Positions 8,924-45,409 of a DNA stretch of 64,000 bases are shown piece by piece. Below the pieces are notes generated by a model. That model made no database searches and had not been told where the DNA came from. It was given only the letters and a program-made list of their open reading frames with translations. The stretch's first letter is position 1. Every line of letters begins with the position of its first letter. The position numbers and the translations under genes were made by a program. Origin of the DNA: Sporichthya polymorpha DSM 43042 (GTDB lineage: Bacteria > Actinomycetota > Actinomycetes > Sporichthyales > Sporichthyaceae); NCBI RefSeq assembly GCF_000384115.1, contig NZ_KB913029.1, forward strand, positions 1,088,907-1,152,906, read 5' to 3'.

Positions 8924-8932
8924 GCGATCTCC

Positions 8933-8980
8933 TTTGTGACGTGACTGTCACAAACTAGGCCGGTGCGCTCCGGATCACAA
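8933..8980 (-). promoter_or_regulatory. Promoter and operator of the LivHM-P450 operon
   Basis: Reading leftward, TTGTGA (8975-8980) and TAGTTT (8952-8957) are separated by 17 bases, a good -35/-10 pair. Immediately downstream is a perfect 8-bp inverted repeat, TTTGTGAC-N6-GTCACAAA (8933-8954), which overlaps both the -10 box and the AAGGAG ribosome site. A repressor bound here would block transcription start. The half-site resembles CRP (TGTGA), but the spacing (N8 between TGTGA and TCACA) does not fit CRP. The regulator is unknown. Confidence 0.6.
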
Positions 8981-9073
8981 GGGGTCGAACCCCCAAAATT
9001 CGCGCCCGTTTTTGGCGCAACCGCCCCGCACAGCCCGCGCGGTCGATGTGACTCTCGCGTCGCTGATGTCAAA

Positions 9074-9117
9074 AAAGGGTGACACCCCTTACTGCGCAGT
9101 AAGGGGTGTCACCCTTT
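9074..9117. repeat. Intergenic 44-bp perfect palindrome (family copy 1)
   Basis: Two 22-base arms match perfectly with no loop, centred on CTGCGCAG; the flanks add further near-matches (A run left, TTCTT right). The core arm reads GGGTGACACCCCTTACTGC, itself containing a small inner palindrome GGGTGACACCC. The same element recurs at 27052-27101 and 28248-28297, and a related triple form at 38977-39054. Here it lies between the operon promoter at 8.98 kb and the 3' end of the SDR gene at 9142, where it could end leftward transcription from the SDR operon. A T tract follows on one strand. Confidence 0.8.
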
Positions 9118-9141
9118 CTTGACGGCGGCCGACGTGAGCGA

Positions 9142-9927
9142 TCAGGCGGGGGCGGAGCGGGCGGCGAGGGTGCGGGCGGCGAGGGTGCGGGCGGCGAGGA
9201 GGCCGCCGTCGAGCTCGAGGTCGACGCCGTTCACCCAGGACGCGGCGGGTGAGAGCAGGAAGGCGACGGCGGCCGCGACCTCGTCGGCACGACCGAGGCG
9301 CCCGACGACGTCGGCCGAGCCGTCGACGCTCGCCCCCATCGACACGCGGAAGTCACCGATAATCGGGGTCTCGATCGGGCCGGGGCTGACGGCACTGACG
9401 CGGACGCCCGACCCCAGCAGAGCGGCCGCGCGGGCGCGGGCGTGGAGGACGAGCAACTTCTTCGACAGGTCGTACGCCGCCGAGCCGTCGAGACCCCGGG
9501 CGGTGGCGAAGGCGAGCACCTCGTCCTCCGCGGCGTCGAGCAGGGACCACGCCACGTCGTCCTCGACGCCCGGCCGCCGCGCGGCCAGCGACGTCACGTG
9601 AACGACGGAGGAACCCGCGAACATCCGACCCGTCAGGGCGTCGGTGAGCCGGCGCGCGGCGAGGAAGTTGACGCGGAGCACGACGTCCGGCGAGGCGGTC
9701 CCGGGGACGCCGGCGACGTTGGCGAGGCCGTCGAGCGCGCCGATGCCCGCGGCGAAGGCGTCGATGCCGGCGGTGTCGGTCAGGTCGAGGGTGACGCGCT
9801 CGCAGCCGGCGGGAACGCCGGTGACGTCGCGATCCACACCCACCACCGCGTGCCCCGCGGCGACGAGCTGGGCCGCCAACGCCTGCCCGATCCCCGAACC
9901 CGCGCCCGTGACGAGGTACCTGCTCAC
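9142..9927 (-). CDS. SDR family oxidoreductase
   Basis: A 261-residue NAD(P)-dependent dehydrogenase. The cofactor motif TGAGSGIG is at about 7-14 and the active site is SAAYDLSKK with the YxxxK pair; SPGPIETP is the usual loop after beta-6. It resembles 3-alpha-hydroxysteroid dehydrogenase/carbonyl reductase-like short SDRs that lack the long NNAG segment (here NVAGVPG). The GTG start at 9927 overlaps the ALDH stop (GTGA). The C terminus carries a short repeated LAART sequence (about 247-256) encoded by a near-perfect 18-bp DNA repeat. It probably acts with the ALDH on an alcohol/aldehyde pair. Confidence 0.88.
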   Translation of the reverse strand: MSRYLVTGAGSGIGQALAAQLVAAGHAVVGVDRDVTGVPAGCERVTLDLTDTAGIDAFAAGIGALDGLANVAGVPGTASPDVVLRVNFLAARRLTDALTGRMFAGSSVVHVTSLAARRPGVEDDVAWSLLDAAEDEVLAFATARGLDGSAAYDLSKKLLVLHARARAAALLGSGVRVSAVSPGPIETPIIGDFRVSMGASVDGSADVVGRLGRADEVAAAVAFLLSPAASWVNGVDLELDGGLLAARTLAARTLAARSAPA

Positions 9928-11279
9928 GCCAGCACCGCCTTGACCTCGCAGAACTCCAACAGGCCCCACTCGCCGAGCTCGCGGCCGACGCCGGACTTCC
10001 CGAACCCACCGAACGGGGCGCCCGGCCGGGTCCGCGTCCGGACCCCGTTGACCTTGACCTGACCTGCCCTCAGACCGGCGGCAACCGCGGCGATCCGCGC
10101 CGGGTCTGCACCCCAGATCTCCGCGGACAGCCCGTAGTCGGTGTCGTTGGCCAGCGCGATCGCGTCGGCGTCGTCGTCGTACGGGAGCAGCACGAGCACC
10201 GGGCCGAAGACCTCGTCCTGCGCGACCTCCGCACCCCGCTCGACGTCCGCGAGCACGACCGGCGCGCAGTACGGCGCAGTCAGGTCGACGCTCGGCCCGA
10301 GGGGGCGCGCACCCGCCGCGACCGCGCGGTCGACGAACCCGCGGACCCGTGCGTGCTGCGCGGTGCTGACCAAGGGGCCGAGGTCGGTCGCGGGGTCGTT
10401 CGGGTCGCCGACCCGGAGCGCGGCGGCCGTCGCCGCGGCGAGAGCCTCGACCCGCGCCGCCGCCGTGCGGGGATACAGCAACCGCGTCGGCGCGTTGCAC
10501 GCCTGGCCGCTGTTGACGAACGCCGCTTTCACCGCGCGCGGGATCACCTCGTCGAGATCGACGTCGTCGAGCACGACCGCGGCGCTCTTGCCGCCGAGCT
10601 CCAGCGCCACGCGGCGGATGGCCGCGCCCGCGAGCGCACCGACCTTCGACCCGACCGCGACCGATCCCGTGAACGAGACGACGTCGACGCCGTCGGCGGT
10701 CACGAGGGTCTCGCCGACCGTCGGGCCGCGGCCGGACACGAGGCCGAGCACGCCGGCGGGAACACCGGCCTCGATCGCGAGTTCGACGAAGCGCGCCGGC
10801 CCGGTCGGGGCGAGCTCACTCGGCTTCAGGACCACGGCGCACCCGGCCGCCAGGGCGGGCGCGAGCTTCGTCGCGCACTGGTAGACGGGGAAGTTCCACG
10901 GGGTGATCGCGGCAACGACACCGGCCGGGACGTGGTGCACCTCGAAGCCGTCGTGCTTCTGCACCCAGGGAAAGTCGCGTGCCGTCGCGGCGGTGTTCTG
11001 CAGGACGGCGGCGACGAGCTCCACCTGTGTCACCCGCGCGAGCGCGCGCGGCATCCCCATCTCGCGCGACGTGGAGTCCGCGATCTCGTCACCGGCGTCG
11101 AGGACGGCCTGCGCCCAGCGGTCGAGGATCGCCGCGCGGTCGGCCACCGGCACCTCGCCCCACGCGGGCGCCGCGGCGCGCGCGGCCGCCACCGTCGCCC
11201 GCACGTCGGCGGGCGTCCTCTCCGCGACGGTGGCGACGACGGAGCCGTCGACCGGGCTGATCACCTGGATCTCGTCCAC
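9924..11279 (-). CDS. Aldehyde dehydrogenase family protein
   Basis: A 451-residue NAD(P)-dependent aldehyde dehydrogenase. The catalytic Cys lies in NSGQACNAPT, the general-base Glu in ALELGGKS, and the NAD-binding PWNFPVY and FTGSVAVG motifs are present. It would oxidise an aldehyde to an acid in the cytoplasm. The family is usually 470-500 residues; this one is somewhat short at the N terminus but complete in its motifs. It is co-transcribed with the SDR behind it and divergent from a TetR gene, which may control it. Confidence 0.92.
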   Translation of the reverse strand: MDEIQVISPVDGSVVATVAERTPADVRATVAAARAAAPAWGEVPVADRAAILDRWAQAVLDAGDEIADSTSREMGMPRALARVTQVELVAAVLQNTAATARDFPWVQKHDGFEVHHVPAGVVAAITPWNFPVYQCATKLAPALAAGCAVVLKPSELAPTGPARFVELAIEAGVPAGVLGLVSGRGPTVGETLVTADGVDVVSFTGSVAVGSKVGALAGAAIRRVALELGGKSAAVVLDDVDLDEVIPRAVKAAFVNSGQACNAPTRLLYPRTAAARVEALAAATAAALRVGDPNDPATDLGPLVSTAQHARVRGFVDRAVAAGARPLGPSVDLTAPYCAPVVLADVERGAEVAQDEVFGPVLVLLPYDDDADAIALANDTDYGLSAEIWGADPARIAAVAAGLRAGQVKVNGVRTRTRPGAPFGGFGKSGVGRELGEWGLLEFCEVKAVLA

Positions 11280-11386
11280 CGGACTCCCTTGTTTGCGACG
11301 AGAGAATCACATTGGGCGTCACCAGGCAAGACCGGCCTCCGAACCTCGCCGCAGGGGTTCCCCCGACCGGCTCCGATCCGTATGGT

Positions 11387-11402
11387 GTGACTCGGCAGTC
11401 GC
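11387..11402. promoter_or_regulatory. Candidate TetR operator in ALDH/TetR divergent region
   Basis: An imperfect inverted repeat, GTGACT-N4-AGTCGC, with one mismatch, lies 36 bases before the TetR start and about 110 bases from the ALDH start. TATGGT (11381-11386) just upstream could serve as a -10 box for the TetR gene. The position suits autoregulation by the TetR protein at 11439, but the symmetry is modest and only one copy is seen. Confidence 0.3.
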
Positions 11403-11438
11403 ATTCCGCGTCGCCGACAGTCGTCCGGGAGGTGACGC

Positions 11439-12146
11439 GTGGAGTCCGACGTCCTGGCCCTCGCCGTGACCGACCCGGCGCCGAAGTCGGGCAACGCGCG
11501 CGGCCGGCGCACCCGGGCTCAGCTGGTCGACGCCGCGACCGCCTGCTTCGGCGAGTACGGCTACGAGCGCACCCGGATCCAGGACATCGTCACCCGTGCC
11601 GGGGTCTCGCAGGGCAACTTCTACCGGCACTTCGAGTCCAAGCGCGAGATCTTCCTCGAGGCGCTCAAGCCCGGCCTCGAGGACCTGCTCGAGGCACGCG
11701 CCGGTCTGCAGGACCACACCGACGCGGACGCGCTCGCCGCGGACACCGTCCTCTACCTGCGCACGTACAGCCGGCACCGTCACATCCTGCGCGTCATGCG
11801 TGAGGCGGCGGCGGTCCGCAGCGACGGCTTCGACGAGCTGTGGCTGCAGCTGCGCAGCAGCTTCGTCGCCCGCACCCAGAGCTGGCTCGAACGGCTGCAC
11901 GCCGCCGGGCGCATCGGGGACGGCGACTTCCCGCAACTGGCAGCCGTCCTCGGCGCGATGGTCGAGCAGGTCGCCTACGTCCAGATCGGTCTGCCCGACC
12001 GGACACCCCGCGACGAGGAGATCCAGCGGATCGCCCGCGTCATCGGCGACGTCTGGCACCGGGCGCTCCCGCCGGTCCCCCGCACGAGCACGACCACCAA
12101 GACAGCCACCAAGACAGCCACCAAGAAGCCCCCCGCCAAGAAGTAG
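11439..12146 (+). CDS. TetR family transcriptional regulator with Lys/Thr tail
   Basis: A 235-residue DNA-binding repressor. The N-terminal helix-turn-helix is GYERTRIQDIVTRAGVSQGNFYRHFESK (about 40-67, key residues VTRAGVSQGNFYRHF); the rest is an all-helical ligand/dimer domain. The C terminus ends in a low-complexity basic tail (TTTKTATKTATKKPPAKK) encoded by a repeated AAGACAGCCACC unit, unusual for TetR and perhaps a non-specific DNA contact. GTG at 11439 follows GGGAGGTG. It lies 23 bases before the PEP-swivel gene and divergent from the ALDH operon; either could be its target. Confidence 0.9.
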   Translation: MESDVLALAVTDPAPKSGNARGRRTRAQLVDAATACFGEYGYERTRIQDIVTRAGVSQGNFYRHFESKREIFLEALKPGLEDLLEARAGLQDHTDADALAADTVLYLRTYSRHRHILRVMREAAAVRSDGFDELWLQLRSSFVARTQSWLERLHAAGRIGDGDFPQLAAVLGAMVEQVAYVQIGLPDRTPRDEEIQRIARVIGDVWHRALPPVPRTSTTTKTATKTATKKPPAKK

Positions 12147-12169
12147 CCCGTCCCGTCCCAGGAGGACCC

Positions 12170-13909
12170 GTGCACGCCTGGCCGCTGAACGACACCGCGT
12201 CGACCGTCTTCCCGCTCACCTCGCGGGCCAACGTGGGCGAGATCTTCCCGGACCCGATCACGCCGCTGAACGCCTCGACCGGGTTCTTCGCGAACCTGGA
12301 GAAGGGCTGGCGCGACGCGTACGTCGCGACCGGGGCGTGGGACCAGGACCTCTACGACGCCGCCGTCCCGCACAACCCGATTCTCATGTTCGGCAGCTAC
12401 ATCTACATCAACATGTCGCTGATGCGGCTGTTCGGCGTGCGCGTTCCCGGCTTCACCCCCGAGGCCGTCGACCTGCAGTACTTCGGTGACATGCCCGGCA
12501 TCCCCTCGTACGAGTCGGAGAAGCGCGACTTCGACTCCGACGCTGCCGCTTCGGAGAAGGCCGGCGCCTGGCTGGTCGGTCAGGTTCTCGGGGCCACCGA
12601 CCTCGCGCCGTTCGACGCCGACCGCGCCCGCGTGCTGGAGATCCGCCGTGCGCGGCCGGACCTGACGACGCTCTCCGACGCCGAGCTCGCCGCTCGCATC
12701 ACCTCGTTCAACGACGACCTGCGGCACTTCTTCTGCAACCACATCGTCGCGAGCCTCGCGGCCGGCGTCGGGCTCGGCGCGGTCGCGCAGGTCTGCGCGG
12801 CGATCGGCAAGCCGGAGCTCTCGCTGACGCTGGTCGCGGGTATCGGTGACGTGGACTCCGCGGGCGCCTCGCGCGGCATGTGGACGCTCTCCCGCAAGGT
12901 CCGTGCCAACGCCGAGCTGACGGCGGCCTTCGACGCCGGCGTCTCCGGTCTGATGGGCCGTCTGCAGGCGCTGGACTCCGTGGACGCCAAGGCGTTCCGG
13001 GTCGACCTGGAGTCGTTCCTCGACGAGTGGGACTTTCGTGGGCAGAGCGAGTGGGAGATCCGCGCCGAGACGTGGAGCACCGACCCGGAGCTCGCGCTGT
13101 CGATGATCGAGCGCCTGCGTCTGGTCTCCGACGACGAGGCGCCCGAGGCGAAGAACGCGCAGCGCGCGGCGGAGCGGGAGGCCGCCTCCGCCGGGATCCG
13201 CGAGGCGCTCGCCGGCAACGAGGCCCTGCCCCAGTTCGAGGCGGCGCTGCACGCGGCCGCGCTGTGGGTGCGGGCGCGGGAGCGGCAGCGCACGTCGGCG
13301 GCCATGCTCATCCACGAGCTGCGGCTGGCCTCGCTCGAGCTCGGCCGCCGGGGCGCCGCCGCCGGCGCCTTGCCCGAGCCCAAGCGCATCTTCATGTTGT
13401 TCGCGGACGAACTGCCCGCGTACGTCGAGAACCCGGCGTCGTTCGCCGACACCCTCGCCGAGCGGGAACGCGTCTACCTGGACCTGTTCAACTACATCCC
13501 GCCGTTCGTCGTCGCGGGCCAGCCGGCGGACTACACGCAGTGGGCGCGCCGCGATGCGCACACCGCCGCGCCCCTGTCCGCCGGGGAGGTCCTGACCGGT
13601 GTCTCCGGCTGCCCGGGCGTCGCCCGCGGCCGCGCCCGCATCGTGCTGAACCCGGACGCGGCCGACGAGTTCGAGCCCGGCGACGTGCTCGTCGCCCCGA
13701 TCACCGACCCGTCGTGGACGCCGCTGTTCGTCGGCGCCTCCGCGGTCGTCGTGAACGTGGGCGCACCGTTCTCCCACGCCGCGATCGTCAGCCGGGAGCT
13801 GGGCATTCCGTGCGTCGTCTCCGCGATCGACGCGACCGTCCGGATCCCGGAGGGCGCCCTGCTCGAGGTCGACGGCACGACCGGTTCGGTGACGGTGGTC
13901 GAGGCCTGA
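12170..13909 (+). CDS. PEP-utilising-enzyme mobile (phosphohistidine swivel) domain protein
   Basis: A 579-residue protein whose last 80 residues are a phosphohistidine swivel domain (GVSGCPGVARGRARIV, then GAPFSHAAIVSRELGIP with the phosphorylatable His near residue 536). In PEP synthase, rifampin phosphotransferase and phenylphosphate synthase this domain moves a phosphoryl group between active sites. Here the N-terminal 470 residues are helical and contain no recognisable ATP-grasp domain, so it must rely on a partner or use the fold for another phosphotransfer. GTG at 12170 is preceded by GGAGG at 12161. It forms an operon with the TetR gene. Confidence 0.8.
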   Translation: MHAWPLNDTASTVFPLTSRANVGEIFPDPITPLNASTGFFANLEKGWRDAYVATGAWDQDLYDAAVPHNPILMFGSYIYINMSLMRLFGVRVPGFTPEAVDLQYFGDMPGIPSYESEKRDFDSDAAASEKAGAWLVGQVLGATDLAPFDADRARVLEIRRARPDLTTLSDAELAARITSFNDDLRHFFCNHIVASLAAGVGLGAVAQVCAAIGKPELSLTLVAGIGDVDSAGASRGMWTLSRKVRANAELTAAFDAGVSGLMGRLQALDSVDAKAFRVDLESFLDEWDFRGQSEWEIRAETWSTDPELALSMIERLRLVSDDEAPEAKNAQRAAEREAASAGIREALAGNEALPQFEAALHAAALWVRARERQRTSAAMLIHELRLASLELGRRGAAAGALPEPKRIFMLFADELPAYVENPASFADTLAERERVYLDLFNYIPPFVVAGQPADYTQWARRDAHTAAPLSAGEVLTGVSGCPGVARGRARIVLNPDAADEFEPGDVLVAPITDPSWTPLFVGASAVVVNVGAPFSHAAIVSRELGIPCVVSAIDATVRIPEGALLEVDGTTGSVTVVEA

Positions 13910-13934
13910 CGCTCCCTCAGGAGTCGGCGCCGGG

Positions 13935-14759
13935 TCAGAGCACCATGAACCCGGCGTCGACCGGCAGCGTCACGCCGGTGACGTAGCGCGCCTCCTCGGA
14001 GCAGAGCCACAGGATCGCGTTGCTGATGTCGAGGGCATCGAGCATCTCGACCGGCATCGCGTGAGCCAGCTTCGACAGCTCGTCGGGGTACGCCGCCGCG
14101 AGCTCGCCGAAGCCCTCGTTGACGATCATCGGGGTGTTGACCGCGCCGGGGTGGACGCTGTTCACCCGAATGCTGTGCGGGGCGAGCATGTTCGCGTACG
14201 TGCGCATCAGCCCGACGACGCCGTGCTTGGCGGCGACGTAGCCCATCATCCCGGCGTTGTCGGGGATGTTCAGCCGCCCGGACAGGCCGGCGACGGACGA
14301 GGTGAGCACGATGCTGCCGCCCCGGCCCTGTTCGATCAGCGTCGGCAGCGCGGCCTCGACGGTGTTGTAGACCCCGGTGAGGTTGACGTCGACGACGTCG
14401 GCGAAGGCTTCGCCGGTCTTCGCGACCTCGCCGATACCGGGGAAGATGCCGGCGTTCGCGAGCACGATGTCGAGCGCGCCCAGCTCGGCGCTCCCGGTCT
14501 CGACGGCCTGGCGCAGCGCGGCGGCGTCGCGGACGTCGGCCCGGGAGACGACGATCCGGGCGTCGCGCTCCTCCACGAGCTTCACCGTCTCGGCGAGGTC
14601 GTCGTCCGTCGCCATCGGGTACCCGACCGAGTCCATCTGCGAGCACAGGTCGACGCCGATAATCGACGCGCCCTCCTCAGCGAGCCGGAGCGCGTGCGAG
14701 CGCCCCTGACCCCGGGCGACCCCGGTGATGAACGCGACCTTGTCGGTGAGACGACCCAT
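13935..14759 (-). CDS. Mycofactocin-coupled SDR family oxidoreductase
   Basis: A 274-residue SDR with the extended cofactor loop [12 protein letters not shown], an insertion after beta-2 ([23 protein letters not shown]) and YVAAK active site. These are hallmarks of SDRs with a non-exchangeable nicotinamide that pass electrons to mycofactocin (TIGR03971 type, as I recall the family). It probably oxidises an alcohol. It is the last gene of a three-gene operon after a VOC protein and an APH-like kinase. The mycofactocin biosynthesis genes are not in this window. Confidence 0.88.
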
Positions 14760-14776
14760 CGAACGCTCCTTCGCGA

Positions 14777-15217
14777 TCAGCTGATGCAGAACTCGTTGCC
14801 CTCGGGGTCCTGCAGAACGACGTAGTAGTACGGGTCGTCGGCGTCGTCGTCCCGGTCCCGCCACTGCACGACGGCGCCGAGCGCGACGAGCTCGTCGACC
14901 CGCGCGTCCACCCTGGCGACCCGCTCGGCCTGCGTCAACGTGTCGTCGCGAGCGGTCGGGTACACGTCGAGGTGGACGCGGTTCTTCCCGGCCTTCGGTT
15001 CCGGCACCCGCTGGAACCAGATCGGCGGGCGCAGGCCCTCCGGGTCGAAGAGCCGGTTGTCGAACTCCTCGCCGTCCCCGAGCCGCCCCCGGTAGTGCCG
15101 GTTCCACGGGGTGTCCGGCTCCGCCGGCGGGACCGGCGTGTAGCCGAGGGCCTGCGCCCAGAACCGGACCAGCGCCGGCGGGTCGAGGCAGTCGATCGTG
15201 ATCTGGAAGAACACCAT
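14777..15217 (-). CDS. VOC/glyoxalase-like domain protein
   Basis: A 146-residue protein of the vicinal oxygen chelate fold (Glyoxalase_6-like): it starts [25 protein letters not shown] and ends [17 protein letters not shown], the two conserved strands of this family. Its role (small-molecule binding, glyoxalase or dioxygenase-like) cannot be told from sequence. ATG at 15217 was chosen because upstream codons in the same frame are antisense to the kinase-like gene's 3' end and give no homology. Seventeen bases separate it from the SDR. Confidence 0.85.
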
Positions 15218-15263
15218 GCGGCGACGGTAGACGCCGCGGGGCCCTTGCGGCGGGAGGCCGCTG

Positions 15264-16542: not shown

Positions 16543-17208
16543 GTGGCAGAACGACGGCGGCACGGCCAGGCCCCCCGGCGCGGCGACGAGCGGCGGGAAC
16601 GGCTGCTCGCGGCACTGGAGGAGCTGCTCGCCGAGCGACCGCTGAGCGAGATCGGGGTGGCCGACATCAGCGCGGCGGCGGGGGTGACCCGGTCGGGGTT
16701 CTACTTCTACTTCCCGAGCAAGGGAGCGGCGGTCGCGGCGCTGCTGGCGGACTTCCGCGACGCCATGGCCGCCGCGGGCGCCGCCTGGTACGAGGACAAC
16801 ACGGCCGATCCGGCCGAGCGCGTCACCCGCACCGTACGGGCGAGCGCCGAGCTATGGCGCGCTCACGCGCCACTGCTGGTCGCCATGCTCGACGCCGCGG
16901 CCGGCGGCCCCGAGACCCAGGAGATCTGGGGATCGTGGACCGCCGGGTTCGTCGAGCGGATCCGGGCGCGCATCGCCGCCGACCGACGGGCGGGGTTGGT
17001 GCACACCGAGGCGGACGCGCGCGCCCTCGCCACGCTGCTCATGGGCGCGACGCTGTCCGCGATGGAGCACGAGGTCCGGGCCGTGACGGCCGGTCAGAAG
17101 CCGCGGCGGGCTCTGCTCGACGCGCTGGTCGACCTGTGGTTCCGGACGCTGTACGCGCCTACTTCTTCCGCTTCGCCAGCAGGCCCTTCACCCGCGTCTG
17201 CAGGTTGA
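16543..17208 (+). CDS. TetR family regulator, EthR-like
   Basis: A 221-residue repressor. Its helix-turn-helix ends GVTRSGFYFYFPSKGAAVAALL, very like the FYFYFPSK recognition helix of mycobacterial EthR. The ligand domain is helical (about 70-200). GTG at 16543 places the DNA-binding domain near the N terminus with no spurious leader. It probably represses the divergent kinase-VOC-SDR operon and itself. Its last 50 bases overlap the convergent SnoaL-like gene. Confidence 0.88.
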   Translation: MAERRRHGQAPRRGDERRERLLAALEELLAERPLSEIGVADISAAAGVTRSGFYFYFPSKGAAVAALLADFRDAMAAAGAAWYEDNTADPAERVTRTVRASAELWRAHAPLLVAMLDAAAGGPETQEIWGSWTAGFVERIRARIAADRRAGLVHTEADARALATLLMGATLSAMEHEVRAVTAGQKPRRALLDALVDLWFRTLYAPTSSASPAGPSPASAG

Positions 17209-17677
17209 CCATTCCCTTCATGCCCTTGTCCGGCGGGCTGCCGGCCGGGGGCATCAGGCCGATCGCACGACCGAGCTCCATCGCGTCGAAGTACGCGTCG
17301 TTGCGCACGATCAGGCCGTCGCGCACGGTGAGCTGGTCGAGGCCCTGGACCTCGCCGCCGGCGCCGGTCGGGAGGAAGCCGTCGAAGCGGCCCGGCCCGG
17401 TGAAGGCCGCCTGCGCACGCCAGTGCACGCAGACCCGGTCGCCCTGGGCGGTCGTCTCGATCACCTCGAGCTTCCACTCGCCCATCGCGTCGAACAGCGA
17501 GCCGAAGAAGCCGCGCAGCCCGGCGGGCACCGGCAGGTTCCGGTTGCCGGGGACGGCCTCCACGCCGCCGGTCGCCACCCAGCACTTGACGGCCCGGTCG
17601 AGGTCACGATCGTTCAGCGCCGAGAAGTACTCCCGGACGATCGCCGTGTTCTGTTCCAGAGTGTCCACGGAAGTCAT
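17159..17677 (-). CDS. SnoaL-like/limonene-epoxide-hydrolase-fold protein
   Basis: A 172-residue protein with the cone-shaped NTF2 fold: TAIVREYFSALNDRDLDRAVKCWVA at the N terminus, then RGFFGSLFDAMGEWKLEVIET and DQLTVRDGLIVRNDAYFDAMEL. These are conserved positions of SnoaL-type polyketide cyclases and related isomerases or hydrolases. A basic tail (RVKGLLAKRKK) ends the protein. It starts 61 bases from the divergent Meh-like gene, in a region with CTGTC-N2-GACAG (17714-17725), which could be an operator. Substrate unknown. Confidence 0.8.
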   Translation of the reverse strand: MTSVDTLEQNTAIVREYFSALNDRDLDRAVKCWVATGGVEAVPGNRNLPVPAGLRGFFGSLFDAMGEWKLEVIETTAQGDRVCVHWRAQAAFTGPGRFDGFLPTGAGGEVQGLDQLTVRDGLIVRNDAYFDAMELGRAIGLMPPAGSPPDKGMKGMVNLQTRVKGLLAKRKK

Positions 17678-17737
17678 GCCCCCAGTGTGTCGATCCCGGG
17701 CACCACGGACATACTGTCCAGACAGGTTGGAGGATTT

Positions 17738-18712
17738 ATGAGTTCCGGTTCCGAGGTCGGCCCGCCGTTCTTCGACGACCTGGCCGTCGGCGACGTCTTC
17801 TCCGCGCCCGGCATGACTCTTGCCCCGGGGCACGCCGCTCTGCACCAGGCGATCACCGGTGATCGCCTCCGGCTCGCGCTCGACGCGCCGCTGTACGAGG
17901 CCGTCACGGGGACGCCGGGTCTGCTCGCGCACCCGGCGCTGGTGTGCGACGTCGCGATCGGGCAGTCGACGGCGCCGAGCGGACGCGTCCTCGGCAACCT
18001 GTTCTACCGCGGCCTGGCCGCGCGGCCGGTGCCCGTCGGGACGACGCTGCGGACGCGGACCGAGGTCGTCGCCCTCAAGACCGCGTCCCGCGGCCGCGGC
18101 ATCGCGGCGCTGCGGTGCACGACGACCGACTCCGACGGCGCGCCCGTGCTCGACTTCTGGCGCTGCCCGTTGCTGCCGGCGCGGACGCCCGAGCCGCCGC
18201 CGCACGACGCCGACCTCGACGCGGTCGGCCGGCCGGTGGACGTCGCCGCGCTGGTGCCGTCGTGGGACCTGGCCCCGCTGCGGGCGGAGCCGCTCGGGCC
18301 GCTGTTCGCCGACCTGACGCCGGGCACGCACCGCATCGTCGCCGGTGAGACCGTGACGAGCGCGCCGGAGCTTGCGCGCCTCACGCTGAACACCGCCATG
18401 ACCCACACCGACGCCACCGCCGGGGCGCACGGGCGGCGGCTCGTCTACGGCGGGCACGTCATCGCGATCGCGCTCGGGCACGTGACGCGGCTGCTGCCCG
18501 ACCTGGCGACAGTGCTGGCCTGGCACTCCTGCGACCACACGGGACCGACCTTCGAGGGCGACCTGCTCCGGACCGAGGTGACCCTCGAGCAGTTGGAGCC
18601 GCTGGCCGACGGCGGGCTCGTCCACTTCCGCGCCCGGAGTGCGGCGCTGTCCCCGGGGGAGGAGACCCCGCGAGAAGTGTTGGACTGGCGTGCGGTGGGG
18701 TTGATGCCATGA
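17738..18712 (+). CDS. meh: MaoC-type hydratase, probable mesaconyl-C4-CoA hydratase
   Basis: A 324-residue double-hotdog hydratase. The C-terminal half holds TLNTAMTHTDATAGAHGRRLVYGGHVIA, the MaoC active-site region, and WHSCDHTGPTFEGDLL follows. Size and order fit 3-methylfumaryl-CoA (mesaconyl-C4-CoA) hydratase, which adds water to give (S)-citramalyl-CoA. The assignment rests largely on its neighbour: it overlaps by 4 bases (18709-18712) a gene that closely matches Mct, the enzyme that makes the C4 thioester. GGAGG lies 7 bases before ATG 17738. A citramalyl-CoA lyase is not seen in the window. Confidence 0.75.
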   Translation: MSSGSEVGPPFFDDLAVGDVFSAPGMTLAPGHAALHQAITGDRLRLALDAPLYEAVTGTPGLLAHPALVCDVAIGQSTAPSGRVLGNLFYRGLAARPVPVGTTLRTRTEVVALKTASRGRGIAALRCTTTDSDGAPVLDFWRCPLLPARTPEPPPHDADLDAVGRPVDVAALVPSWDLAPLRAEPLGPLFADLTPGTHRIVAGETVTSAPELARLTLNTAMTHTDATAGAHGRRLVYGGHVIAIALGHVTRLLPDLATVLAWHSCDHTGPTFEGDLLRTEVTLEQLEPLADGGLVHFRARSAALSPGEETPREVLDWRAVGLMP

Positions 18713-19911
18713 CAGGGGTTCTGGCCGGTCTTCAGGTCATCGAGGGCTCGGCGTTCGTCGCCGCGCCTCTCGGCGGGATGACGCTGGCTCAGCTCGGGGC
18801 GGACGTGATCCGCTTCGACGACATCGGCGGCGGCCTGGACTACCAGCGGTGGCCGCTGGCGCCGGGCGGGCAGAGCCTGTTCTGGGCCGGGATGAACAAG
18901 GGCAAGCGCTCGGTCAGCGTGAACCTGCGCAGCGAGGCCGGCCGCGAGCTCGTCACCGGGCTGGTCGCGAAGGCGGGCAACCTGATCACGAACTTCCCGG
19001 CTCGCGGGTGGCTGTCCTACGACCGGATGCGGGAGCACCGACCCGACCTGGTGATGGTCGCGCTGACCGGCAACCGTGACGGGACGAGCGAGGTCGACTA
19101 CACGGTGAACCCGGCGACGGGGTTCCCGCTCGCCTCGGGCCCACGCAACCTGACCGAGCCGGCGAACTCGCTGATGCCGGCGTGGGACGTCGCGATGGGT
19201 GGGCTGACCGCGACCGGTCTGCTCGCCGCCGACCGTCACCGCTCCCGGACCGGCGAGGGCCAGCTGATCGGGCTCGCGCTCTCCGACGTTGCGTTCGCGA
19301 TGGTGGGGCACCTCGGCCGCATCGCCGAGGCCCAGCTCGGCGGGCGCGACCAGGACAAGGACGGGAACTACCTCTACGGCGCGTTCGGCCACGACTTCGC
19401 GACGGCCGACGGGCGTCGCGTCATGGTCGTCGCGCTGACGAGTCGTCAGTGGAACGCCCTGCGCGAGGTGACGGGCCAGCAGAAGGCCTTCGACCAGATC
19501 GCGAAGGCGACCGGCCTCGACCTCGACACCGAATCCGGCCGGTACGAGGGCCGCGACCTGATCGCCGCGATCCTCCGGCCCTGGTTCGGCGCGCGCACCC
19601 TCGCCGAGCTCCGCGAGCTCTTCGACGGAACCGGCGTCTCCTGGGGCCCGTACCAGACCTTCACCCAGCTGGTCGTCGACGACCCCCGGTGCTCCGAGGC
19701 GAGCCCGATGTGGGAGACCGTCGAGCACCCCGGCGTCGGCTCCTACCTGATGCCCGGCACCCCGCTGGAGTTCTCGGGCATCCCCCGCCGGCCCGTCCGC
19801 CGCGCCCCGCTCCTCGGCGAACACACCGAGGAGGTTCTCTCCGAAGTCCTCGGCCTCACCTCCACCGAGATCGGGCGGCTCCAGCAGGAGGGCACGGTGG
19901 CGGTGGGCTGA
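18709..19911 (+). CDS. mct: Mesaconyl-CoA C1-C4 CoA transferase (2-methylfumaryl-CoA isomerase)
   Basis: A 400-residue class III (CaiB/BaiF) CoA transferase that, as far as I recall the Chloroflexus Mct sequence, matches it along the whole length: EGSAFVAAPLGGMTLAQLG, GGGLDYQRWP, ITNFPARGWLSYD, SEVDYTVNP, GNYLYGAFG and GSYLMPG. The conserved Asp in MPAWD (about residue 160) is where the catalytic aspartate lies in this family. Mct moves CoA within mesaconyl-CoA from C1 to C4 without free acid release. Together with the hydratase gene it overlaps, it would channel mesaconyl-C1-CoA to citramalyl-CoA. The wider route in this organism is unknown. Confidence 0.85.
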   Translation: MTGVLAGLQVIEGSAFVAAPLGGMTLAQLGADVIRFDDIGGGLDYQRWPLAPGGQSLFWAGMNKGKRSVSVNLRSEAGRELVTGLVAKAGNLITNFPARGWLSYDRMREHRPDLVMVALTGNRDGTSEVDYTVNPATGFPLASGPRNLTEPANSLMPAWDVAMGGLTATGLLAADRHRSRTGEGQLIGLALSDVAFAMVGHLGRIAEAQLGGRDQDKDGNYLYGAFGHDFATADGRRVMVVALTSRQWNALREVTGQQKAFDQIAKATGLDLDTESGRYEGRDLIAAILRPWFGARTLAELRELFDGTGVSWGPYQTFTQLVVDDPRCSEASPMWETVEHPGVGSYLMPGTPLEFSGIPRRPVRRAPLLGEHTEEVLSEVLGLTSTEIGRLQQEGTVAVG

Positions 19912-19913
19912 CG

Positions 19914-20645
19914 TCAGGCCTTCGGCCGACCCATCGACCACATCTGGACGGCCTGCTCGGCGCGCAGTGCGGACTGCCACGGCAGTTGCCGCGAGGAGGT
20001 CTGCGCCCGGAAGGTCTGCGTCGCCGCCCGCGCGAGCTCGGGGTCGGTGCATCGCCGCGCGAGCTCCAGGGCACGCTCGTCGACCTGGTCGTCCGGCAGC
20101 GCCTCCCACGCCAGGCCGAGGTCGACGAGCTTCTGCCCGACGACCTCCTCGCCGAGCAGCGTCATCGCGACCGAGGTCTGCGGGCCGGCGATCTTGTCGA
20201 GCAGCATAAAGTGCCCACCGCCGGGGTGCAGGCCGATCTTGAGGAACCCGGAGAGCAGCTTGGTCTCGGTGGAGACGATGCGGACGTCGGCCGCGAGCGC
20301 GAGGTTCACGCCGGCCCCCACCGCCGGGCCGCGCATGGCCGCGATCACGGGGACGTCGACGGTGCCCGCCGCGACGAAGCACTGGTAAACCTTGCCGAGC
20401 CCGTCCAGGACCGTCGGGTCCGTGGGGTTCTCGCGGGCGGCGGCGAGCAGCGGCCGCGCAGCTCCGGAGCAGAAGGCGCCGTTCTCCCCCCGCAGGACCA
20501 GCGCCGCCACACCCGGGTCGTGCTGCACGGTCGCGATCGCGTCGAGGAACGCGCCGGCGCTCTCGCCGGTGAACGCGTTGCGCGTCGGCGCATCGTCGAG
20601 GGTGATGATCGCGACGGTTCCGTCGACCTTCAGCGAAACGCTCAC
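19914..20645 (-). CDS. Enoyl-CoA hydratase/isomerase family protein
   Basis: A 243-residue crotonase-fold protein. GENGAFCSGA and RGPAVGAGVNLALAADVR form the oxyanion-hole regions that bind the thioester carbonyl. The two Glu residues used by classical hydratases (in PExxLG and the following GG region) appear replaced: the segment reads FLKIGLHPGGGHFML. Simple enoyl-CoA hydration is therefore doubtful; isomerase, lyase or hydrolase activity is possible. GTG at 20645 is preferred because GGAGG lies 8 bases upstream and an ATG at 20690 would overlap the divergent gene's start. Confidence 0.85.
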   Translation of the reverse strand: MSVSLKVDGTVAIITLDDAPTRNAFTGESAGAFLDAIATVQHDPGVAALVLRGENGAFCSGAARPLLAAARENPTDPTVLDGLGKVYQCFVAAGTVDVPVIAAMRGPAVGAGVNLALAADVRIVSTETKLLSGFLKIGLHPGGGHFMLLDKIAGPQTSVAMTLLGEEVVGQKLVDLGLAWEALPDDQVDERALELARRCTDPELARAATQTFRAQTSSRQLPWQSALRAEQAVQMWSMGRPKA

Positions 20646-20688
20646 AGCGGGCTCCTCCGGGTTCTCGACCGGCACCGAGCGTACGGTC

Positions 20689-21525
20689 ATGCCCGTGCGC
20701 GACGACCCCCGGATCAGCTCGACCGACGACGTGACGCTGCACGTGGAGGACTTCGGAGGAGACGGGCCGCCCCTGCTGATCTGCCACGCGACGGGGTTCT
20801 GCGGGGGTGCGTACGCACCGCTGGCGGCGGCGCTGACGCACCGGTTCCGGGTGTTCGCGCTCGACTTCCGGGGTCACGGCCGGTCCGACCCGGCGCCCGG
20901 GAACGACTGCTCGTGGCACCGGATGGCGGAGGACGTCCGCGCCGTGGCGACGGCCCTCGACCCGTCCGGGGTCGCGGTGCTCGGGCACTCGATGGGAGCT
21001 GCCGCCGCGCTGATCGCGGAGACCCGGTGGCCGGGGACGCTGCGGGCGGCGTACGTCTTCGAGCCCGCGTTGCTGGCGGACACGGACGAGCGGCCCGACC
21101 CCACGGCCTTCGTCGAGCGGACGCGGCGGCGGATGTCACGGTTCTCGTCCCGCGGCCTCGCGGGCGAGCGCCTGCGCCGGACGCCGACCTTCGTCGGTTG
21201 GAGCGACGAGAGTCTGCGGGCCTTCCTCGAGCACGGCTTCCGGGAGACCGAGGACGGCAGCGTCGAGTTGCGCTGCGCCCCGGAGACCGAGGCCGCCTGT
21301 TACGCCTCGGGCGCGGAGCGCACCGGCGTCATCGACGTGGCCGTGCCCGTGACCGTCGCGGTCGGCACCGAGCCGGACCAGATCCGCGCGGCCCGCAGCG
21401 CCCGCATCCTCGTGGACACCCTCCCGACCGCCCGGCTCGTCGAGCATCCCGGCACGACACACTTCGGCCCGTTCGAGCGCCCGGGTGAGATCGCGACCGC
21501 CGCGCTCAAGGCGCTCGCCGTCTGA
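20689..21525 (+). CDS. Alpha/beta hydrolase
   Basis: A 278-residue serine hydrolase. The nucleophile elbow is GHSMGA (Ser near residue 103), the oxyanion region is CHATGFCGGAY, and a C-terminal HPGTTHFGPFERP supplies the likely catalytic His. GHGRSDPAPGND before the cap is typical of esterases, epoxide hydrolases and C-C hydrolases in this superfamily. Start ATG 20689 has no clear ribosome site, and GTG 20695 is an alternative. It is divergent from the crotonase gene. Confidence 0.85.
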   Translation: MPVRDDPRISSTDDVTLHVEDFGGDGPPLLICHATGFCGGAYAPLAAALTHRFRVFALDFRGHGRSDPAPGNDCSWHRMAEDVRAVATALDPSGVAVLGHSMGAAAALIAETRWPGTLRAAYVFEPALLADTDERPDPTAFVERTRRRMSRFSSRGLAGERLRRTPTFVGWSDESLRAFLEHGFRETEDGSVELRCAPETEAACYASGAERTGVIDVAVPVTVAVGTEPDQIRAARSARILVDTLPTARLVEHPGTTHFGPFERPGEIATAALKALAV

Positions 21526-23828: not shown

Positions 23829-25214
23829 TCAGCCGCCGCCCAGCGCGAGCTCGGCGACCTCGGCGAGGTCGTGATCCTCCAGGTGCAGGACGACGTCGAT
23901 CAGGCGCTTGGCGTTCTCCGCCGGAAGGCGGCGCAGGGTGCGTTCGACCATCGCGACCCGCTCGTCGAGGGAGGGCAGGGACGCCGTCAGGCTCGGGACG
24001 ACGCGGGTGATCGTGCGGCCGTCGTGGAGGGTCACGACCACGGTCTGATCCGCGAACGCGCGGACGCTGGCGCTGTCGTCGACGTGGATCCGCACGCGTT
24101 CCCGGGCCGCGACGTAGCGCGGGTCGCGGGACGCCTCGTCGGTGAACGCGGCGGTGTACGGCAGCTCCGGGATGCCCTCGACGAGCAAGCCGGCCACCCC
24201 GTGGCGGATGCTGAACTTCGCCTGCTCACCGCTGATCGGGTCGCGGTAGGGCGCGATGCGGTCGGCCCAGGCCGGGACGTGGAGGTCGACGGTCGCGATG
24301 TCGTCGGGGCGAAGGCCCTCGGCCCGCAGGATGTCGATCGTGCCGTAAATCGTCTGGTGCGTGAGGCCGCAGGAGCCGTACTGCTTCGGCGCGACCCCGG
24401 CGGTGAGGAGGAACAGGGTCTCGCCCAGACCCTCCGTCAGCTTCTCCTCGGCATAGGGGCGGGCGCCGCCGGCGGCGAACTGCTCACCCCAGGAGTAGGC
24501 GCCGTCAAGGTAGTTGTCGCAGGCGGTGAACCCGTCGGCCGCGAGCTGCGCGGCGAAGACGCCCGTGCGCGCCGGGACACCGGCCTCGTGGACGTGCGCC
24601 ATCGAACCGCACCCGCGGGTGCTGCCGTTGCCGAGCGGCAATGCGGTGCCGAGCGCGTGACGCATCTGCTCCGCCGTCAGGTCGTACAGCCGGCCGGCCG
24701 TCACCGCGGCACCCGCCGGACCGACGAGCGAGATCCCCATGAAGCCGCGGTCGCACGCGCCGATGCCCGCCGTCCCGAGGCGGCCCTGCATCTCGACACC
24801 CGCGACGAGCGCGGTCAGGTAGTCCCGACCGCTGCGGCTGCGGAACTCGCCGACGGCGAGCCCCGCCGCGATCGGCGGGATCAGGCCACTGCCCGGCAGC
24901 GTGCCGTAGGACTCGAGTTCGTCCGCGTGCGCGAGGGAGCCGTTGACGTACGCGGCCTCGGCCACGGAGGTCCGGAACCCGCCGCCGAGCACGGCGGCCT
25001 GGGCGGTCGCGCCGAGATCCCGGGCGTACCGGACGAGCATCCGGCTGACCGGCTGCGGATGGGCGTTGACCATGTGGCCGATGCACTCGAGGGTGAAGAT
25101 CTTCCCCACCTCGACCGCCTCGTCGGGCAGGTCGTTGAACTGCAGCCCGACCAGGAACTCACTGAGCGTGGCCGTGATCTCGCTTCGACGCTCGGTTTCG
25201 ACGGAGGCAGTCAT
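23829..25214 (-). CDS. MmgE/PrpD family protein (copy 1)
   Basis: A 461-residue member of the MmgE/PrpD superfamily (2-methylcitrate dehydratase, cis-aconitate decarboxylase and relatives). AEAAYVNGSLAHADELESYG near residue 100, GACDRGFMGISLVGP, and FSIRHGVAGLL are characteristic segments. Members dehydrate, decarboxylate or isomerise polycarboxylates or their CoA esters. ATG at 25214 follows a -10 box by 7 bases, supporting a leaderless start. It is a clear paralogue of the protein at 37549 (roughly two thirds identical by eye). It is divergent from a luciferase-like oxidoreductase gene. Confidence 0.88.
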   Translation of the reverse strand: MTASVETERRSEITATLSEFLVGLQFNDLPDEAVEVGKIFTLECIGHMVNAHPQPVSRMLVRYARDLGATAQAAVLGGGFRTSVAEAAYVNGSLAHADELESYGTLPGSGLIPPIAAGLAVGEFRSRSGRDYLTALVAGVEMQGRLGTAGIGACDRGFMGISLVGPAGAAVTAGRLYDLTAEQMRHALGTALPLGNGSTRGCGSMAHVHEAGVPARTGVFAAQLAADGFTACDNYLDGAYSWGEQFAAGGARPYAEEKLTEGLGETLFLLTAGVAPKQYGSCGLTHQTIYGTIDILRAEGLRPDDIATVDLHVPAWADRIAPYRDPISGEQAKFSIRHGVAGLLVEGIPELPYTAAFTDEASRDPRYVAARERVRIHVDDSASVRAFADQTVVVTLHDGRTITRVVPSLTASLPSLDERVAMVERTLRRLPAENAKRLIDVVLHLEDHDLAEVAELALGGG

Positions 25215-25221
25215 GCGACAA

Positions 25222-25332
25222 ACGGTAGTCGCGGCCTCCGTGAGCGTCAACGTTCGTGTTGCCAGAGGCCGCCCAGCCAGCCAATACAACGTCAACGTCG
25301 AAGTTGACAGCGGGGTGAGCGGGCCCTACTTT
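25222..25332. promoter_or_regulatory. Divergent promoters with regulon operators, sites 2 and 3
   Basis: Site 2 (25247-25262, TCAACGTTCGTGTTGC) supplies a leftward -35, TTGACG (complement of 25245-25250), 17 bases from TACCGT (complement of 25222-25227), with the MmgE/PrpD ATG 7 bases on. Site 3 (25292-25307, TCAACGTCGAAGTTGA) supplies a rightward -35, TTGACA (25304-25309), 17 bases from TACTTT (25327-25332), for the luciferase-like gene. Each promoter thus has its own operator over the -35 element. Confidence 0.7.
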
Positions 25333-44908: not shown

Positions 44909-45409
44909 ATGACGAACATGCCGGGAGACGAGTACGACGAGCTCGAGGCGCGCGTCAGCGCGCTGGAAGCTTCAGTTGTCCCGTTGCGTGCGCGCAGCGC
45001 CGACGTGCGGGGTGAGTTCGCCCGCGTGCACGAGGAGATCGCCGGCGTGCAGACACAGCTCGCGCACCTGAGCGCGACGGTCGAGGACATCCGCGAGGAG
45101 CAGCGGGATCTCTCGGTTGCCCTGATCGCGCAGTCGGCGCGGTTGGACAACGTCGTCGAGCAACTCCAGGACCTTCGATCCACAGTCTTGATGCTGGCCC
45201 GCGCATCCAACGAGCACACTGCAACGCTCGCCGAGCACAGCACCATCCTCGACCAGCACACCGCCACCCTGGACCGGCACAGCACCATCCTCGACCAGCA
45301 CACCGCCACCCTGGACCGGCACAGCACCATCCTCGACCAGCACACCGCGACGTTGGATCGCCACACCGGGCTGTTGCACGAGATCCTGCGGCGGCTGCCC
45401 GCGGCTTAG
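44909..45409 (+). CDS. Coiled-coil protein with 14-residue repeats
   Basis: A 166-residue soluble protein predicted to be one long coiled coil: the N-terminal ELEARVSALEASVVPLRARSADV region has heptad-spaced Leu/Val. The C-terminal third is three exact copies of HSTILDQHTATLDR followed by RHTGLLHEILRRL. No enzymatic motif is seen. ATG 44909 follows GAGGGGGG. It has no operator upstream and ends 4 bases into the convergent CoA-transferase gene. Similar DUF-type coiled coils in actinobacteria are of unknown role. TTATCCACA, a DnaA-box match, lies 67 bases upstream. Confidence 0.7.
   Translation: MTNMPGDEYDELEARVSALEASVVPLRARSADVRGEFARVHEEIAGVQTQLAHLSATVEDIREEQRDLSVALIAQSARLDNVVEQLQDLRSTVLMLARASNEHTATLAEHSTILDQHTATLDRHSTILDQHTATLDRHSTILDQHTATLDRHTGLLHEILRRLPAA
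45236..45361 (+). repeat. 42-bp tandem repeat, three units, in coiled-coil gene
   Basis: Units start at 45236, 45278 and 45320 and begin CACAGCACCATCCTCGACC. The first two are identical; the third differs at a few bases near its end. Each unit encodes 14 residues, two heptads, so gain or loss of units would lengthen or shorten the coiled coil without changing frame. Confidence 0.9.

What the first reader, a model, noticed from the sequence alone, without database searches (positions are those of the whole stretch)
17738..19911. Meh-Mct pair of the 3-hydroxypropionate bi-cycle in an actinobacterium
The CaiB-family protein at 18709 matches Chloroflexus Mct along its length as I recall it, including MPAWD and GNYLYGAFG, and is translationally coupled to a MaoC-type double-hotdog protein fitting mesaconyl-C4-CoA hydratase. 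The pair would turn mesaconyl-CoA into citramalyl-CoA, a source of acetyl-CoA and pyruvate. In this host it could serve glyoxylate, propionate, itaconate or mesaconate assimilation.
Basis: partly seen in the sequence, partly recalled or inferred. Interest (0 to 1): 0.7.

Follow-up and report, generated by a model that had tools for sequence, protein, structure and literature searches.

The report
Actinobacterial mesaconyl-CoA isomerase and hydratase pair
An actinobacterium carries two translationally coupled enzyme genes that most likely turn mesaconyl-CoA, an intermediate of its acetate-assimilation pathway, into a compound that splits to acetyl-CoA and pyruvate; the first enzyme resembles one known from the Chloroflexus CO2-fixation cycle, but its partner is a different hydratase from the one used there.

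Summary
18709-19911(+) encodes a 400-aa CoA-transferase, 59% identical over its full length to crystallised Chloroflexus and Roseiflexus Mct, with every crystallographic contact residue kept. It overlaps (ATGA) a 324-aa double-hotdog protein, 17738-18712(+). The interpretation needs two corrections. (1) The hydratase is not Meh: its profile match to Meh is negligible, while its match to mesaconyl-C1-CoA hydratase (Mch/MeaC) is full length with 7 of 8 malate-binding residues conserved. The closest solved relative is the uncharacterised Rv0216. The Mct is a sister clade, below NCBI's cut-off for 2-methylfumaryl-CoA isomerase. (2) The context is not the 3-hydroxypropionate bi-cycle. The host encodes the ethylmalonyl-CoA pathway (Ccr, Ecm, Msd, Mch, Mcl) and no detectable isocitrate lyase. 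The pair recurs in over 40 loci, often with a CitE/Mcl-type lyase adjacent, and such Mct loci go with Ccr in 25 of 30 actinobacterial genomes but 0 of 10 proteobacterial, Binatota and Myxococcota ones. Best reading: mesaconyl-C1-CoA to C4-CoA to citramalyl-CoA to acetyl-CoA plus pyruvate, a side exit of the ethylmalonyl-CoA pathway; in four MAGs it may replace Mch. Hydratase regiospecificity and flux direction are inferred. New variant of a known kind.

The parts
17729..17733 (+). GGAGG ribosome-binding site of the hydratase gene, 4 nt before its ATG
   Evidence: read directly from the sequence
17738..18712 (+). double-hotdog mesaconyl-CoA-type hydratase (called MaoCx here), 324 aa, sister of Mch/MeaC and Rv0216; predicted mesaconyl-C4-CoA hydratase
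18709..18712 (+). ATGA overlap of stop and start codons (translational coupling); the same 4-bp overlap is seen in 21 of 44 related loci
18709..19911 (+). Mct-like family III CoA-transferase, 400 aa; catalytic D160, L43 and R47 of the sealed intramolecular active site conserved; predicted mesaconyl-CoA C1:C4 transferase

Best explanation
The two coupled genes form a two-step module. The Mct-like enzyme moves CoA within one molecule from C1 to C4 of mesaconate through an Asp160-bound intermediate. The MaoCx hydratase then adds water to mesaconyl-C4-CoA to give (S)-citramalyl-CoA. A CitE/HpcH-type lyase encoded elsewhere in this genome (next to the pair in the closest relatives) cleaves that to acetyl-CoA and pyruvate. 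In this host mesaconyl-C1-CoA comes from the ethylmalonyl-CoA pathway (Ccr, Ecm, Msd all present), so the module is a side exit that yields pyruvate alongside the usual glyoxylate + propionyl-CoA branch (Mch, Mcl); net, acetyl-CoA + CO2 to pyruvate. Shown here: homology, active-site conservation, coupling, recurrence of the pair, the host's ethylmalonyl-CoA gene set, and absence of a detectable isocitrate lyase. Inferred: the substrates, the C4 regiospecificity of MaoCx, which lyase is used, and flux direction.
For: Mct: 59% identity and 532 bits to crystallised Mct versus 105 bits to the next family. Ligand contacts L43, R47, R75, N100, F101, R104, E133, D135, Y136 and D165 of C. aurantiacus (PMC9813914) are all kept; position 43 is Asp in all five other family III CoA-transferases compared. 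MaoCx: profile match to Mch 99.9% over 322 columns; Z 38.9 to MeaC, with a gap to 23.5 for other hotdog dehydratases; MeaC residues N85, R142, N226, H231, Y248 and G249 (PMC10164722) invariant in 22 MaoCx proteins, S79 as S/T. Pairing: MaoCx lies beside Mct in most of 44 loci, with ATGA overlap in 21; a CitE-type lyase is adjacent in 14, including the window's nearest relatives L012 and L042. Host: Ccr 600 bits over a 378.55 cut-off, Ecm, Msd 79% and Mch 85% to Streptomyces, two CitE-type lyases, no isocitrate lyase detected. Co-occurrence: Ccr in 25 of 30 actinobacterial genomes with such Mct loci; in an even sample of 396 Actinomycetota, 9 of 12 genomes with a close Mct versus 124 of 384 others, Fisher p 0.0036, not corrected for phylogeny. 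C4 over C1: an Mct coupled to the hydratase has no evident purpose if the hydratase takes the C1 ester that the pathway makes anyway; in Defluviicoccus a true Meh takes the same place beside Mct and Ccr is present; four MAGs with Ccr, Msd and Mct-MaoCx show no Mch- or Ich-type MaoC.
Against: No biochemistry. MaoCx is closer to the C1 hydratase Mch than to Meh. The adjacent CitE protein tested resembles malyl-CoA/beta-methylmalyl-CoA lyase more than dedicated citramalyl-CoA lyases, and none lies beside the pair in this host. The host has a regular Mch, so the module is not needed to complete the ethylmalonyl-CoA pathway there. Ccr is absent from the 10 proteobacterial, Binatota and Myxococcota genomes with comparable Mct loci (most of them with MaoCx), so the module has another use at least there. 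Arg314' of Mct, given a role by simulation (PMC9196870), is Gly309 here. TIGR04253 cut-off not met.
Confidence: 0.5

Rival explanations
1. Same enzymes, other source: the module is the second half of the 3-hydroxypropionate bi-cycle used for glyoxylate/propionyl-CoA co-assimilation. Mcl and Mch run backwards from glyoxylate + propionyl-CoA to mesaconyl-C1-CoA, then Mct, MaoCx and a lyase give pyruvate + acetyl-CoA.
For: The host has Mcl and Mch, and bacteria with MaoCx-Mct but without Ccr (Binatota, Mesorhizobium, Myxococcota) must get mesaconyl-CoA some other way. A non-autotrophic partial bi-cycle was proposed for Kentron (PMC6593406).
Against: In Actinomycetota the Mct loci go with Ccr, and four MAGs lack a detectable Mch of the Streptomyces type, which this route needs.
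Confidence: 0.18
2. MaoCx is a second mesaconyl-C1-CoA hydratase (an Mch), and Mct feeds it from mesaconyl-C4-CoA made by an itaconyl-CoA hydratase. The module would drain itaconate, citramalate or methylsuccinate to glyoxylate + propionyl-CoA.
For: MaoCx is homologous to Mch over its whole length and unrelated to Meh at profile level; the neighbouring lyase tested is Mcl-like; the host has an Ich-type hydratase beside CitE2.
Against: The host already has a regular Mch. Four MAGs with the pair have no Ich-type protein. The strict F71 to I change in the acyl pocket separates MaoCx from Mch. A C4 to C1 route forgoes the short path from citramalyl-CoA to acetyl-CoA + pyruvate.
Confidence: 0.15
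3. The pair acts on a different branched dicarboxylyl-CoA, for example an intermediate of ring or terpenoid catabolism, with the same intramolecular transfer followed by hydration.
For: The neighbourhood is full of short-chain dehydrogenases, an amidohydrolase, a luciferase-like oxidoreductase and crotonase genes; intramolecular CoA transferases with other substrates exist (ThnP, IaaL; PMC11659651); TIGR04253 cut-off not met.
Against: Acyl-pocket residues for the C5 dicarboxylate are kept in both proteins. Neighbours other than the pair are not conserved: the downstream side is not seen next to the pair in a sister species, and across 44 loci only MaoCx, Mct and CitE recur.
Confidence: 0.15
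4. A remnant of a true autotrophic 3-hydroxypropionate bi-cycle acquired from Chloroflexota.
For: TIGR04253 hits in Actinobacteriota MAGs have been read as possible bi-cycle markers (PMC9802188).
Against: The partner is not Meh; Smt, Mcl and double-hotdog Mch are not clustered with it; the actinobacterial Mct proteins fall outside the Chloroflexota/Accumulibacter clade (99/98 support). [quoted passage not shown]
Confidence: 0.02

Closest known systems
[quoted passage not shown] C. aurantiacus 8APQ, R. castenholzii 7XKG)
   Same: 59% identity over the full length; catalytic Asp; Arg47 and Tyr136 that hold the free carboxylate; Leu43 that narrows the tunnel; adenine-end Phe101, Arg75 and Arg104
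   Different: Sister clade (UFBoot 99 / SH-aLRT 98 for the Chloroflexota-Accumulibacter clade that excludes it), 546 bits against a 725-bit cut-off; Arg314' replaced by Gly; hydratase partner is MaoCx instead of Meh
[quoted passage not shown] 8HGN)
   Same: Double hotdog, Z 38.9; 7 of 8 malate-binding residues conserved
   Different: About 26-32% identity; Phe71 replaced by invariant Ile; coupled to an Mct, which suggests the C4 ester as substrate; Pfam MC_hydratase 15.4 bits against a 26.5 cut-off
Rv0216 of Mycobacterium tuberculosis (2BI0), function unknown
   Same: 53% identity, Z 41.8, same acyl-pocket residues including the Ile
   Different: Partner genes of Rv0216 were not examined here
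Meh, mesaconyl-C4-CoA hydratase of the 3-hydroxypropionate bi-cycle
   Same: Predicted reaction and place in the pathway
   Different: Different protein family: profile comparison 13% probability over 50 columns
Ethylmalonyl-CoA pathway of Streptomyces type (ccr-ecm-mcl-mch-msd)
   Same: All its genes are in the host, at about 73-85% identity to Streptomyces
   Different: The Mct-MaoCx side exit is not part of the published pathway as far as the library searched here shows
Itaconate/methylsuccinate cluster (Ict, Ich, Ccl, Mcd, Msi; PMC12290011)
   Same: Mesaconyl-C4-CoA to (S)-citramalyl-CoA to acetyl-CoA + pyruvate
   Different: There the C4 ester is made directly and no intramolecular transferase is used; hydratase of another type

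Membership tests
Mct (TIGR04253) | Score at or above the curated equivalog cut-off of 725 bits | tested here: not met
   545.8 bits; controls Roseiflexus 863.6, Accumulibacter 813.5, Defluviicoccus 738.5
Mct (TIGR04253) | Catalytic Asp165 plus Arg47, Tyr136, Asp135, Asn100 around the substrate | tested here: met
   D160, R47, Y131, D130, N95 in the window; all five invariant in 42 MaoCx-linked Mct proteins
Mct (TIGR04253) | Leu/Ile at position 43 that narrows the tunnel in intramolecular transferases (PMC9813914) | tested here: met
   L43 in the window; D in five other family III transferases, A/V in mycobacterial Mct-like proteins
Mct (TIGR04253) | Arg314' of the second subunit, proposed from simulations (PMC9196870) | tested here: not met
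   G309 in the window; Arg in 21 of 24 canonical proteins, mostly Gly/Asp in the MaoCx-linked ones
Mct (TIGR04253) | Intramolecular C1-C4 CoA transfer without external acceptor | not testable with these tools
   needs an enzyme assay
Meh (mesaconyl-C4-CoA hydratase) | Homology to bi-cycle Meh proteins | tested here: not met
   hhalign 13.2%, 50 of 338 columns; no tblastn match of three Meh proteins to the window at 1e-6
Meh (mesaconyl-C4-CoA hydratase) | Hydration of mesaconyl-C4-CoA to (S)-citramalyl-CoA | not testable with these tools
   inferred from coupling to Mct and context only
Mch/MeaC (mesaconyl-C1-CoA hydratase) | Full-length double-hotdog homology with Asn226/His231 catalytic pair and dicarboxylate site | tested here: met
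   Phe71 is the exception (Ile)
Mch/MeaC (mesaconyl-C1-CoA hydratase) | Pfam MC_hydratase (PF19315) gathering score | tested here: not met
   15.4 bits against 26.5; Roseiflexus Mch scores 53.5
3-hydroxypropionate bi-cycle locus | Mct clustered with Meh, Smt, Mcl and Mch | tested here: not met
Ethylmalonyl-CoA pathway (host) | Ccr, Ecm, Msd, Mch and Mcl encoded | tested here: met

The most novel reading that the evidence does not exclude
A natural variant of the ethylmalonyl-CoA pathway ends in pyruvate: mesaconyl-C1-CoA is moved to the C4 ester by Mct, hydrated by a hydratase of the Mch/Rv0216 group and cleaved to acetyl-CoA + pyruvate, so that acetyl-CoA + CO2 gives pyruvate without glyoxylate, isocitrate lyase or pyruvate synthase. 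In some actinobacteria (candidates: four Pseudonocardiales-type MAGs with Ccr and Msd but no detectable Streptomyces-type Mch) this is the only exit from mesaconyl-CoA.
Probability: 0.3. Interest if true: 0.75.

Novelty: new variant of a known kind. Interest (0 to 1): 0.52.

Why it matters
If true, it adds a pyruvate-yielding exit to the ethylmalonyl-CoA pathway in actinobacteria. It also warns that TIGR04253-type hits are not by themselves a marker of 3-hydroxypropionate autotrophy: the actinobacterial ones pair with another hydratase and tend to go with Ccr. It gives a testable function for the Rv0216 group of double-hotdog proteins (mesaconyl-type dicarboxylyl-CoA hydratases), whose founding member has had a structure since 2005 and, in the library searched here, no assigned substrate. 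For synthetic CO2-fixation cycles it offers an Mct/hydratase pair from a non-Chloroflexota source that could link mesaconyl-C1-CoA to pyruvate.

Tried and rejected
Meh homology: rejected. Membership in the curated Mct equivalog: rejected, while the residue signature is kept. MmgE/PrpD gene at 23829-25295 as a methylsuccinate isomerase or cis-aconitate decarboxylase partner (suggested by PMC12290011): set aside, because its best solved relative is an iminodisuccinate epimerase and this side of the locus is not seen beside the pair in the sister species G001. Mycobacterial Mct-like proteins (374-405 bits) as orthologues: set aside, since position 43 is Ala/Val and no MaoCx was found beside the gene in the loci fetched. 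Search for a lyase or Mch on further contigs of the four Mch-less MAGs: only Ccr, Ecm and Msd found, inconclusive. A careful tree of 92 Mct proteins did not finish; a 44-protein careful tree was used instead.

Full report
What is there. ORF 18709-19911(+) (400 aa) and ORF 17738-18712(+) (324 aa) overlap as ATGA; GGAGG lies 4 nt before the first ATG. The next genes on either side point the other way (SnoaL-type 17159-17677(-), crotonase 19914-20690(-)), so the two are an operon of their own. In a sister species of the genus (G001) the pair is 95% and 97% identical; 7905-15236 and 17154-19904 of the window align at 92%, the rest of the surroundings in the stretch fetched does not. The pair is therefore the stable unit.

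The CoA-transferase. It matches crystallised Mct of Chloroflexus (8APQ) and Roseiflexus (7XKG) at 59% identity over its full length with 532 and 531 bits; the next family scores 105 bits. The structure paper (PMC9813914, read) names Asp165 as nucleophile, Arg47 and Tyr136 as holders of the free carboxylate, Asp135, Glu133 and Asn100 along the tunnel, Phe101, Arg75 and Arg104 at the adenosyl end, and Leu43 (Leu/Ile in intramolecular enzymes) as the constriction. All are kept in the window protein. Position 43 is Asp in Smt and three CaiB paralogues of the same genome, and Ala/Val in mycobacterial Mct-like proteins. Arg314', given a role by simulation in PMC9196870, is Gly309 here. NCBI's equivalog model gives 545.8 bits against a 725 cut-off that canonical Mct proteins pass. 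In a 44-protein tree the window protein pairs with a Conexibacter MAG (L012; 99/93) in a clade of MaoCx-linked proteins (100/99), outside the Chloroflexota-Accumulibacter clade (99/98). It is a sister of Mct that keeps its mechanism-specific residues.

The hydratase. Best solved match is Rv0216 (280 bits), then Mch (87 bits). Profile comparison with 12 bi-cycle Mch proteins is full length (99.9%, 322 columns); with 12 Meh proteins it is negligible (13%, 50 columns). The AlphaFold2 model (pLDDT 94.3) aligns to Rv0216 at Z 41.8, to MeaC 8HGN at 38.9 and to a Chloroflexus protein 4E3E at 37.9, then drops to 23.5. Of the eight residues around malate in MeaC (PMC10164722), Asn85, Arg142, Asn226, His231, Tyr248 and Gly249 are invariant in 22 MaoCx proteins, Ser79 is Ser/Thr, and Phe71 is invariantly Ile; Rv0216 shares this pattern. 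By its pocket it is a C4/C5-dicarboxylyl-CoA hydratase. The haloarchaeal Mch hydrates mesaconyl-C4-CoA with only a 3.5-fold bias for C1 (PMC5592240), so C4 activity of such MaoC-type enzymes has a precedent, but a C4 preference here is not shown.

The pair elsewhere. A genome scan with the Mct profile gave 80 loci. Most fall into two layouts: the bi-cycle layout (Meh, Smt, Mct, Mcl, Mch) in Chloroflexales, Accumulibacter, Rubrivivax and others; and a second one in which MaoCx accompanies Mct (44 loci with the window and two further genomes, 21 with the ATGA overlap) in Thermoleophilia, Pseudonocardiales, Acidimicrobiia, Binatota, Myxococcota and Mesorhizobium. In 14 of these 44 a CitE/HpcH-type lyase is adjacent, among them L012 and L042, the nearest relatives of the window. 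The host genome has only three matches to that lyase family, two of them over the cut-off, so chance adjacency is unlikely, although the loci are not all independent. By sequence the lyase of L011 is closer to malyl-/beta-methylmalyl-CoA lyases than to dedicated citramalyl-CoA lyases, which leaves the lyase's own preference open.

The host. The genome (5.5 Mb, one contig, 99.5% complete) encodes Ccr, an Ecm-type mutase (73% to the Streptomyces Ecm), thiolase, MeaB and epimerase beside Ccr (by reading), Msd (79% to Streptomyces), the single-hotdog Mch (85%) beside an Mcl-type lyase, and a second CitE in a leucine/itaconate-type cluster with an Ich-type hydratase. No isocitrate lyase was detected. 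Mesaconyl-C1-CoA is therefore expected in this cell as a product of the ethylmalonyl-CoA pathway.

Co-occurrence. Ccr over its cut-off is present in 25 of 30 actinobacterial genomes with non-bi-cycle Mct loci, in one Chloroflexota genome, and in 0 of 10 Proteobacteria/Binatota/Myxococcota genomes with comparable loci. In an even sample of 396 Actinomycetota, 9 of 12 genomes with a close Mct (490 bits or more) have Ccr against 124 of 384 others (Fisher p 0.0036, no correction for phylogeny; several of the twelve belong to one family). Four related MAGs (G033, G034, G036, G038) have Ccr and Msd (three also Ecm on the contigs read) and Mct-MaoCx, but no Streptomyces-type Mch or Ich-type protein at E 1e-10; G028, with Ccr, also lacks it. 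They are MAGs of one clade, so this is a lead, not a proof. In Defluviicoccus and its near twin (L072, L068) a true Meh sits next to Mct and the genome has Ccr, an independent case of Mct + C4 hydratase + ethylmalonyl-CoA pathway.

Interpretation. Mct next to a mesaconyl-type hydratase makes sense if the hydratase uses the C4 ester, or if C4 ester has to be brought back to C1. The host's own Mch, the Mch-less MAGs and the Defluviicoccus analogue favour the first. I give about 0.75 to intramolecular C1-C4 transfer, 0.6 to C4 hydration, and 0.5 to the whole reading as a side exit of the ethylmalonyl-CoA pathway. Substrates, lyase choice and direction are inference.

Known versus new. That TIGR04253 hits occur in Actinobacteriota without a complete bi-cycle was reported before (27 MAGs, PMC9802188). 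The consistent partner hydratase, its Mch/Rv0216 affiliation, the adjacent lyase and the link to Ccr were not found in the papers searched; that search covers open-licence papers only.

Noticed in passing
L112, L113, L114, L115 (mycobacteria-type genomes G123, G395, G301, G403; the taxon is inferred): A third Mct-like group (374-405 bits, about 43-47% identity) with Ala/Val at position 43, next to a TesB-like thioesterase in L112; in L114 and L115 a Meh homologue lies a few kilobases away. Function unclear, intramolecular signature not met.
   Followed up: partly
L121 (G362, actinobacterium without Ccr): Mct-like gene with a Meh homologue (49%) and a CitE-type lyase (39%) on the same 19 kb: another combination of the same three activities.
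   Followed up: no
window 17738-18712 versus PDB 2BI0: Rv0216 of M. tuberculosis shares 53% identity and the complete dicarboxylate pocket with MaoCx, so it is predicted to be a mesaconyl-type dicarboxylyl-CoA hydratase.
   Followed up: partly
window 23829-25295 (-): MmgE/PrpD-family protein, closest solved relative an iminodisuccinate epimerase (112 bits), then bacterial IRG1; probably unrelated to the pair.
   Followed up: partly
window 45406-47766 (-): 786-aa protein with two CaiB/BaiF CoA-transferase halves fused in tandem.
   Followed up: no
   Followed up: no
L021/L117 (Conexibacter arvalis): Mct present and Ccr present, but no MaoCx recognisable beside it although the close relative L017 has one.
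   Followed up: no
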